Shown here piece after piece: positions 25,301 through 27,889 of a stretch of DNA of 34,580 nucleotides. The notes beneath the pieces are model-generated. The model worked only from the letters and a program-made list of their open reading frames with translations, was not told the origin of the DNA and did no database searches. Where the stretch lies: positions 1 through 34,580 of the forward strand of contig JAJYIP010000004.1 in assembly GCA_021790005.1 (NCBI GenBank), read 5' to 3'. The stretch's first letter is position 1. The number at the start of each line of letters is the position of its first letter. A program made the translations under genes and the position numbers. The stretch comes from a bacterium. GTDB taxonomy: Bacteria > Patescibacteriota > Saccharimonadia > Saccharimonadales > UBA4665.

Positions 25301-25301
<1 letters not shown>

Positions 25302-25576
25302 TGGCAGAAGCTAAGCCGGCCGATACAACTAAAACCATACACGTTAAAGTCGCTTCACCATTCCAGGTATACTTTGACGAATCGGCCTATAGCGTATCTG
25401 CCGTTAACGGTACGGGTCCGTTCGATGTTCTGCCTGGACACCATAACTTCATTACCCTGCTTATTCCCTGTGAGATTAAGATAAGGACCACTAGTGATGA
25501 AGACATGAAGATACGTATCAGCGGTGGTATGATGCACGTCAAAGCCGACATGGCTAGTGTTTTCCTAGATGTTTGA
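25301..25576 (+). CDS. F-type ATPase epsilon subunit, short (beta-sandwich domain only)
   Basis: 'FQVYFDESAYSVSAVNGTGPFDVLPGHHNFITLLIPCEIKIRT'; 91 aa, ends without a C-terminal helical hairpin. Confidence 0.75.
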
Positions 25577-25713
25577 GGGCGTTTTGGTTGTATAAGCAGA
25601 TTCCCCGGATTGTTCGTTACGTCGCAAAAACCCTACACGAGGGCGCTGCTATACCGCTCAATCTAGGTATTCATTCAGGTGTGCTTTTTATACAGTGTCA
25701 CCTTGAACTAGGG

Positions 25714-25722
25714 TGCTATAGT
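25714..25722 (+). promoter_or_regulatory. Extended -10 promoter-like element (TGC-TATAGT) upstream of small peptide gene
   Basis: TGCTATAGT at 25714-25722, ~26 nt before ATG 25748; SD GGAGG at 25737-25741. Confidence 0.4.
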
Positions 25723-25747
25723 GAGGTTAATAAAACGGAGGACAGAC

Positions 25748-25927
25748 ATGAATACCCTAGAGACTATAAGTAGTAGCGAACCAGACCAATCAAAAACTTT
25801 ATTTGAAATACTCGCAGTTAAAACTGATGTTTCGCAAAAGTTAGGAGAGATAATTATGGCAACTCAAACCAGAACTTATTTGGGGCCGGGTAATTACGAC
25901 TCCGACACCGACCATTCGGATTATTAA
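25748..25927 (+). CDS. Small peptide, candidate RiPP (omega-ester/graspetide-like) precursor
   Basis: GGAGG 6 nt before the ATG; MNTLETISSSEPDQSKTLFEILAVKTDVSQKLGEIIMATQTRTYLGPGNYDSDTDHSDY; Thr-rich then Asp/Ser-rich C-terminus; adjacent to a pre-ATP-grasp remnant. Confidence 0.6.
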   Translation: MNTLETISSSEPDQSKTLFEILAVKTDVSQKLGEIIMATQTRTYLGPGNYDSDTDHSDY

Positions 25928-25960
25928 TTCAATTTTTTAACAGGTACTGTAAATTAGTGC

Positions 25961-26485
25961 ATGAACAAGGATTACGCTTCTATTTTGTCTACAATGATGA
26001 GAGAGGATCAACAACTCATATTATCGATAGACGAAAACCCGAAGTTATTTCAAAGACAAAACAAAAAACATATTGCTCAGCTGAGACAAATCCTTGAAGA
26101 AATTAAAGAGCCAAGAATCTCTATACTTGGGTACAACGGCGCATTGGCTGCTTGGTTAATTGTTCAGCATGCTAATTATGATGTCTCTTTTCAAAGGAAA
26201 TATCTAAATATAACCAAAAAGCTTTATAGAAATAATCCAGACGAGGTATATAAAGAAGGCATAGCTTATCTAGAAGATAGAATTTCCGTACAAGATATAG
26301 GTAAACAGTTGTACGGAACCCAATTTAAAGACTCTTTGGAATTTGATAACAGCCTTGAACCTTATCCAATACTTAATATCGATCGATTGGCAGAAAGAAG
26401 AAAAAAAATGGGACTATCTAATATTGAAGAGTATATCAAGGAACTAGAACAGGTCTATGGAAAAAAAGTTATTTATAGCTTCTAA
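25961..26485 (+). CDS. DUF6624-like protein
   Basis: 'RISILGYNGALAAWLIVQHANYDVSFQRKYL...GIAYLEDRISVQDIGKQLYGTQF...ERRKKMGLSNIEEYI' matches the family pattern as I recall it. Confidence 0.7.
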   Translation: MNKDYASILSTMMREDQQLILSIDENPKLFQRQNKKHIAQLRQILEEIKEPRISILGYNGALAAWLIVQHANYDVSFQRKYLNITKKLYRNNPDEVYKEGIAYLEDRISVQDIGKQLYGTQFKDSLEFDNSLEPYPILNIDRLAERRKKMGLSNIEEYIKELEQVYGKKVIYSF

Positions 26486-26738
26486 TTCTTATGATGGAAT
26501 TAATACTGATTCGGTAGCCAATGAAATAGCTAGATCTTTAGATTGTTAAATATTTCGCTATGATGCCAATAAGATGAATTTAGGCAGAACGGTTATCGAG
26601 CTGTCTATCGGCAATCGAGAAGAAGAATATTCCATCATCAATTCAAATGGTCGGTGGTACTGGCTTGAACATGGACTAGGATTGCCTATTTCAATGTCCC
26701 TAGCAAAGTTGTTGGTCAATATCTTTCACGAACATTAG
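26457..26738 (+). pseudogene. Degenerate, truncated N-terminus of an MvdD-like (pre-ATP-grasp) RiPP maturase
   Basis: One frame reads MEKKLFIASNSYDGINTDSVANEIARSLDC*IFRYDANKMNLGRTVIELSIGNREEEYSIINSNGRWYWLEHGLGLPISMSLAKLLVNIFHEH*; in-frame TAA at 26547-26549; start overlaps the DUF6624 stop; no ATP-grasp catalytic domain before mnmA at 26834. Confidence 0.6.
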
Positions 26739-26833
26739 TTTTTAATTTACGACACTAGACCTTACTTGTTCAATTTTGTATTGACCAGTATCTTTGGCCA
26801 AATAACTCAGGATATTTTAAAATATAACTTAAG

Positions 26834-27889
26834 ATGGCTCGTAAAGTATTTGTCGGCATGTCCGGCGGAGTTGATAGCTCGCTGAGCGCAGCCTTGCTTA
26901 AAGAGCAGGGCTATGATGTCGTGGGTGTGTACATGAAAAACTGGACCAGGGATCTACCGGGGTTCGTTTGTCCGTGGAAAGAGGATTATCGTGACGCCAA
27001 GACGGTTGCTGTTCAGCTAGGCATCCCCTTTAAGGTTTTCGATTTCGAAACCGAATACCGTCAGGCTGTCGTCGATTATATGATTGATGGTTATAAGCAG
27101 GGCTTGACGCCGAATCCTGACATTATGTGCAACCAGGAAATTAAATTCAAACTATTTTTAGAAACCGCCCTGAAACAGGGTGCGGATATGATAGCGACCG
27201 GACATTATGTCCGCACAAAAGACGGGCGTTTGTATAAGGGCAAAGACGATAACAAAGACCAGAGCTATTTTCTATATCGGGTCAGCGCGGACGCGCTGAA
27301 GCATACGCTCTTCCCTGTTGGCGAACTTAGCAAGGACCGGGTTAGGGCGGAGGCGGCGCAGCGCCAGCTGATTACCGCTACCAAGCGTGACAGTCAGGGG
27401 ATCTGTTTCGTCGGTGAAGTCGGTATTAAGCAGTTTTTGCTTAATGAGCTCGGTGAGCAATTGCCCGGTAAGATTATTGACCAGTCCGGTCGGGAAGTTG
27501 GTGTACACGACGGCGCCATTTTTTACACAATCGGCCAGCGCCATGGTCTCAATGTCGGCGGCGGATTACCTTATTATGTTATCGACAAGAATATGCATAA
27601 AAATATCGTTTATGTTACCACGGACATAAATGACGTTAAGCTATGGAGTTCTAAAGTCGATCTGGTCAATCCTTGGTGGATCAATGCTCCTCCGGAAACC
27701 GGCAAAAATTATCTTGTAAAAACTCGCTACCGATCGACTAGCGTGGAATCGACCGTCTTAAGTTTAACGAACAATAGTTTGAGCATACACCTGAGCGAAG
27801 AGGTTAGAGCGGTCAGTCCGGGCCAGTCAGCCGTGATTTATGACCAGGATCAGGTTTTGGGCGGGGGGATTATTCTTAGAGGCGAATAA
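26834..27889 (+). CDS. mnmA: tRNA-specific 2-thiouridylase MnmA
   Basis: 'GMSGGVDSSLSAALLKEQGYDVVGVYMKNW', 'TPNPDIMCNQEIKF', 'ATGHYVR', 'KDQSYFLYRV', 'SQGICFVGE'. Confidence 0.95.
   Translation: MARKVFVGMSGGVDSSLSAALLKEQGYDVVGVYMKNWTRDLPGFVCPWKEDYRDAKTVAVQLGIPFKVFDFETEYRQAVVDYMIDGYKQGLTPNPDIMCNQEIKFKLFLETALKQGADMIATGHYVRTKDGRLYKGKDDNKDQSYFLYRVSADALKHTLFPVGELSKDRVRAEAAQRQLITATKRDSQGICFVGEVGIKQFLLNELGEQLPGKIIDQSGREVGVHDGAIFYTIGQRHGLNVGGGLPYYVIDKNMHKNIVYVTTDINDVKLWSSKVDLVNPWWINAPPETGKNYLVKTRYRSTSVESTVLSLTNNSLSIHLSEEVRAVSPGQSAVIYDQDQVLGGGIILRGE

What the first reader, a model, noticed from the sequence alone, without database searches (positions are those of the whole stretch)
25748..25927. Small peptide with leader/core architecture: ...ATQTRTYLGPGNYDSDTDHSDY
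The C-terminal ~22 residues place hydroxyl donors (T,T,T) before a cluster of acidic acceptors (D,D,D,D) around a Gly-Pro-Gly turn. The leader is amphipathic (KTLFEILAVKTDVSQKLGEII). A second in-frame ATG (25856) with its own AGGAGAG SD-like site could give a 23-aa core-only product. ORF callers commonly skip genes this short.
Basis: partly seen in the sequence, partly recalled or inferred. Interest (0 to 1): 0.6.

Follow-up and report, generated by a model that had tools for sequence, protein, structure and literature searches.

The report
Orphaned graspetide precursor beside dead ligase
The small gene most likely encodes the raw peptide of a graspetide (a ring-linked peptide natural product) in a Saccharibacteria genome, but the ring-forming enzyme encoded next to it is a wreck, so it is a decaying member of a known kind of pathway rather than something new.

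Summary
The 59-aa ORF is real (25748-25927, GGAGG site 6 nt upstream). It is the first gene of a ~1.2-kb, low-GC insertion (about 25577-26792; 36% vs 46% GC) between atpC and mnmA, which in 12 of 17 congeners are at most 67 nt apart. The insertion reads peptide, DUF6624 gene (25961-26485), then a wrecked MvdC/MvdD-like ATP-grasp ligase (26457-26738: ~53 N-terminal codons with a TAA, ~230 codons missing, ~40 C-terminal codons). Intact Saccharibacteria clusters carry a precursor, often a DUF6624 gene, and a ligase. Their precursors share a T-V-F/L-E-x-L-A leader block (here KTLFEILA) and, in the DUF6624 clade, a C-terminal D-x-x-D (here DHSDY). DUF6624 stays under purifying selection; two other genomes show DUF6624 beside a ligase stub, one with an intact precursor. 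Two intact ligases lie elsewhere in this genome, so modification in trans is possible. The peptide has no orthologue, so its own selection is untestable; a full-length precursor profile does not detect it; the internal ATG is unsupported. Candidate-phyla graspetides and the DUF6624 link are published. Ordinary, with one lead: DUF6624 outlives its ligase.

The parts
25577..26792 (+). graspetide-type cassette inserted between atpC and mnmA (about 1,216 bp; left end follows the atpC stop, right end by alignment to the empty site of congener G047)
   Evidence: empty site in G047, 42-nt gap; GC 0.363 vs window median 0.462
25695..25722 (+). possible promoter: GTGTCA-16-TATAGT with extended TG, ending 25 nt before the peptide's ATG
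   Evidence: weak (7 promoter-like sites found, 4.9 expected by chance)
25737..25742 (+). GGAGG ribosome-binding site of the peptide gene
   Evidence: sequence
25748..25927 (+). 59-aa graspetide-type precursor peptide gene (leader with KTLFEILA block, core ending DSDTDHSDY)
25793..25816 (+). leader block KTLFEILA (residues 16-23), matching TVLEALA / SVFEALA / TVFEKLA of relatives
25856..25927 (+). internal in-frame ATG and putative core MATQTRTYLGPGNYDSDTDHSDY; internal initiation not supported by relatives
25961..26485 (+). DUF6624 protein, 174 aa, intact, confident fold (pLDDT 95), under purifying selection
   Evidence: (PF20329 E 2.8e-14)
26457..26738 (+). remnant of the graspetide synthetase (MvdC/MvdD/TIGR04187-like ATP-grasp ligase): N-terminal ~53 codons (26457-26615, TAA at 26547-26549), about 230 codons missing, then ~40 C-terminal codons (26616-26735)
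25301..25576 (+). atpC, left neighbour (boundary, not part of the cassette)
26834..27889 (+). mnmA, right neighbour (boundary, not part of the cassette)

Best explanation
The ORF is the precursor gene of a graspetide-type RiPP cassette that entered the atpC-mnmA gap in this Saccharibacteria lineage and is now decaying. In the ancestral cassette the ligase would have bound the leader (KTLFEILA block) and joined Thr/Ser hydroxyls of the core to Asp side chains with ATP, with DUF6624 as an accessory protein of unknown activity. Today the dedicated ligase is null, so the peptide is an orphan: not macrocyclised by a local enzyme, and either translated unmodified, modified in trans by one of two intact ligases elsewhere in the genome, or simply not yet broken. 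DUF6624 is the part still under selection. Shown: reading frames, insertion, ligase wreck, DUF6624 constraint, shared precursor leader block. Inferred: leader binding, ring chemistry, the fate of the peptide today.
For: Ligase remnant is collinear with intact ligases at both ends and matches the C-terminal part of TIGR04187/TIGR04185/TIGR04184. Intact ligases of the same kind in the same genome match those models over most of their length, though below the curated cut-offs (E down to 1e-49). DUF6624 sits between precursor and ligase in L030, L037, L053 and L132, and overlaps the ligase start here (29 nt) as in L037 (23 nt) and L132 (14 nt). Leader block and N-terminus resemble precursors of intact clusters, and the C-terminal DxxD those of the DUF6624 clade. 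Empty site with 42-nt gap in the closest congener (MnmA 92% identical). DUF6624 dN/dS 0.04-0.28 versus G047:C5, third codon positions 47% and second 79% identical.
Against: A full-length precursor profile gives the peptide only 4.9 bits, no better than many shuffles, and did not find it in its own genome, so homology rests on short blocks plus position. I noticed the leader block before I tested it. No orthologue of the peptide, hence no selection test. dS for DUF6624 is saturated. The contig is from a draft assembly, so the ligase deletion could in principle be an assembly error, although an in-frame stop and the loss of E-C from the FLECN motif point the same way.
Confidence: 0.8

Rival explanations
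1. Active split system: the precursor is still modified, in trans, by the intact ligase at the start of contig C28 (L027) or at its end (L026), so the window holds a satellite precursor, not a relict.
For: Two intact ligases with their own precursors in the same genome; the L027 precursor shares the leader block and the C-terminal DxxD. Precursor ORF and ribosome-binding site are intact.
Against: A similar intact precursor plus DUF6624 with a ligase stub occurs in G035:C8, whose 91%-complete genome shows no other ligase, so intactness does not require a trans ligase. The leader block here deviates from the LGKxTVLEALA consensus.
Confidence: 0.25
2. DUF6624 is the selected unit, for example self-protection against graspetides or a stand-alone enzyme, and the peptide is carried along because it lies upstream in the same transcript.
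For: DUF6624 is intact beside ligase stubs in the window, G047:C5 and G035:C8, and stands alone in several other genomes. Invariant H70, D106, Q116, G119 are compatible with an active site.
Against: No biochemical data; no PDB fold match. Standalone copies are divergent and may have another role.
Confidence: 0.35
3. The ORF is a chance open frame upstream of DUF6624.
For: 59 codons is short; no orthologue; full-length precursor profile does not detect it.
Against: Good ribosome-binding site, position upstream of DUF6624 as in L030, L037, L053 and L132, leader block reached by 95 of 200,000 shuffles, similar N-terminus and C-terminal DxxD.
Confidence: 0.08

Closest known systems
Graspetide clusters of candidate-phyla bacteria (Makarova et al. 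2022, PMC8939145, branches 1 and 2)
   Same: Short precursor near an ATP-grasp ligase and an uncharacterised accessory protein; core fits TxxxTx(6-10)Dx(1-4)D.
   Different: Leader here is T-x-F/L-E-x-L-A, not the published Phhx(1,2)h; ligase here is broken. Whether their 'cluster 23' is DUF6624 was not verified.
Graspetide groups 18, 20, 23 and 42 with DUF6624 (Carter et al. 2026, PMC13097080)
   Same: DUF6624 gene in the cluster; group 42 includes many examples from uncharacterised candidate phyla.
   Different: Those are predicted clusters with a ligase; group assignment of the window remnant was not tested.
Saccharibacteria clusters found here (L027, L030, L037, L053)
   Same: precursor, DUF6624, ligase; leader TVLEALA/SVFEALA/TILEALA; C-terminal D-x-[SD]-D.
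   Different: Ligase intact in L027, L030 and L037 (ends at 250 aa in L053); LG[KR]xT consensus stronger than in the window peptide; gene order differs in L027.
Microviridins (MvdC/MvdD)
   Same: Remnant matches the C-terminal part of the MvdC and MvdD models.
   Different: No PFFARFL leader or TxKxPSD core (microviridin features from general knowledge).

Membership tests
graspetide precursor | short peptide with leader and C-terminal core rich in Thr/Ser donors and Asp/Glu acceptors | tested here: met
   59 aa; T39, T41, T43 then D50, D52, D54, D57
graspetide precursor | leader motif shared with precursors next to ligases of the same lineage | tested here: met
   KTLFEILA versus the T-V-F/L-E-x-L-A block of 12 precursors; 95 of 200,000 shuffles reach the score
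graspetide precursor | recognised by a full-length profile of related precursors (a detection test, not a chemical definition) | tested here: not met
   4.9 bits, shuffles score higher; not found in own-genome search
graspetide biosynthetic cluster | functional ATP-grasp ligase in the cluster | tested here: not met
   ligase has a stop and lacks about 230 central codons; intact ligases lie elsewhere in the genome
graspetide biosynthetic cluster | accessory DUF6624 gene as in groups 18, 20, 23, 42 (frequent, not universal) | tested here: met
   PF20329 E 2.8e-14; same position in L030, L037, L053, L132
graspetide | omega-ester or omega-amide side-chain links in the product | not testable with these tools
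   needs mass spectrometry
Makarova branch 1 precursor | Phhx(1,2)h leader motif | tested here: not met
   the only leader proline, P12, is followed by D-Q-S, not by hydrophobics; inspection against PMC8939145

The most novel reading that the evidence does not exclude
DUF6624 is a self-protection or ligase-independent effector protein of graspetide clusters, and in Saccharibacteria it (with or without the linear precursor) is repeatedly kept after the ligase is lost, turning producers into protected non-producers.
Probability: 0.22. Interest if true: 0.55.

Novelty: new member of a known kind. Interest (0 to 1): 0.33.

Why it matters
It documents gain and decay of a graspetide cassette in Saccharibacteria and gives a testable lead on DUF6624, a family noted in graspetide clusters but uncharacterised: a partner that outlives its ligase points to a role other than helping that ligase. 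It also shows why a precursor near a ligase gene is not evidence of a product.

Tried and rejected
Scan of genome contigs with the window DUF6624 alone found no relative. The weak peptide hit in G057 (L003) overlaps a large penicillin-binding-protein-like ORF on the minus strand and has a stop inside; taken as noise. Plasmid search with the peptide: no match. Viral-contig scan with the DUF6624 alignment could not be run. Full-length precursor profile does not detect the peptide. Fold search of DUF6624 gave no PDB or viral match at E <= 0.001; defence-library hits are weak. Internal start at 25856 rejected for lack of conservation. Streptomyces locus L054 (ligase 50% identical) showed no recognisable precursor or DUF6624. 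MAFFT first aligned the window's KLGEIIMA with the relatives' leader; I preferred KTLFEILA because it matches the TxFExLA block.

Full report
Observation. The 59-aa ORF at 25748-25927 is present as described, with a GGAGG ribosome-binding site and a second in-frame ATG at 25856 preceded by AGGAGAG. It occurs once in its genome, with no orthologue in 393 genomes of the order. The close named relatives of the associated ligase are Saccharibacteria MAGs or unnamed bacterial MAGs that correspond to genomes of the same family, so the genome is taken as Saccharibacteria.

Surroundings. The ORF is followed by an intact DUF6624 gene (25961-26485; PF20329, E 2.8e-14) and, overlapping its end by 29 nt, a broken gene of an ATP-grasp peptide ligase (26457-26738). 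The broken gene keeps the first ~53 codons (with TAA at 26547-26549) and the last ~40 codons; about 230 codons between them are missing, and the conserved FLECN has become SII-N. Intact ligases of the same kind match the MvdC, MvdD and TIGR04187 models over most of their length, though below the curated cut-offs.

Insertion. In 12 of 17 congeners with mnmA found, atpC and mnmA are at most 67 nt apart, including the closest, G047 (MnmA 92% identical, 42 nt); in the others the gap is 141, 237 or 735 nt, filled by another gene, or atpC is not adjacent. In the window it is 1,257 nt. Aligning to the G047 empty site puts the insertion at about 25577-26792. It is 36.3% GC against a window median of 46.2%, near the window's minimum. 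No clear target-site duplication or transposase was seen.

Relatives. Clusters with a ligase carry a 54-82-aa precursor, often DUF6624, and the ligase. Most precursors share an 'ET[LI]'-type N-terminus and the block T-V-F/L-E-x-L-A; in the DUF6624 clade (L027, L030, L037, L053) the C-terminus is D-x-[SD]-D. The window peptide has MNTLETIS, KTLFEILA and DHSDY. A leader matrix built without it ranks it first of 324 small ORFs in the window (95 of 200,000 shuffles reach it), with one of about 2,165 background ORFs above it. A full-length profile, however, gives only 4.9 bits. Membership rests on short blocks plus position.

Decay pattern. DUF6624 is 57-58% identical to the copy in G047:C5, with dN/dS 0.04-0.28 (dS saturated) and much higher identity at second (79%) than third (47%) codon positions, so it has been constrained. 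In G047:C5 the ligase is broken after roughly 20 codons and no precursor was found. In G035:C8 an intact 86-aa precursor and DUF6624 precede a ligase that keeps only about 48 codons, and that genome (91% complete) showed no other ligase. Other damaged ligases: G000:C12, G036:C11, G063:C7, G155:C1; some may be assembly errors. DUF6624 also stands without a detectable ligase in several genomes (only about 1.5 kb of flank seen). Its model is confident (pLDDT 95) but has no solved relative.

Mechanism. Inferred from graspetide biochemistry: the ligase binds the leader and uses ATP to join core hydroxyls to Asp side chains. Here that step is lost in cis. Two intact ligases remain on contig C28, so modification in trans cannot be excluded. 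Literature: candidate-phyla graspetides and the pattern TxxxTxDxD (PMC8939145); the pattern fits the window core but also 6-9% of shuffles. DUF6624 occurs at high frequency in groups 18, 20, 23 and 42 and was suggested as a possible undiscovered class of biosynthetic enzyme (PMC13097080). The finding is therefore a relict member of a known kind; the rivals' confidences overlap because the fate of the peptide and the role of DUF6624 are separate questions.

Noticed in passing
L026, L033, L034, L035, L038, L041 (downstream of the ligase, opposite strand): A second Saccharibacteria graspetide type (precursor ...TVFEKLAQ...DGQTVPDER) has a convergent ~158-aa gene starting MNLYHSSPIKNLK or MKLYHASPIKNLK; the L026 copy is weakly similar to DUF6886.
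   Followed up: no
L132:1063-2041 (G035:C8): Second case of intact precursor plus DUF6624 with the ligase cut to about 48 codons, in a genome with no other ligase found.
   Followed up: partly
L054:3980-4981: Streptomyces sp. DSM 110735 ligase is 50% identical to a Saccharibacteria graspetide ligase, with a different neighbourhood; possible transfer between Saccharibacteria and actinobacteria.
   Followed up: partly
L028:3396-3644 (G000:C12): Another graspetide ligase C-terminal remnant (77% identical to the G047:C4 ligase) in the same genome.
   Followed up: partly
L182:497-1402: In congener G062 a different 301-aa gene lies between atpC and mnmA, so this gap has taken inserts more than once.
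   Followed up: no
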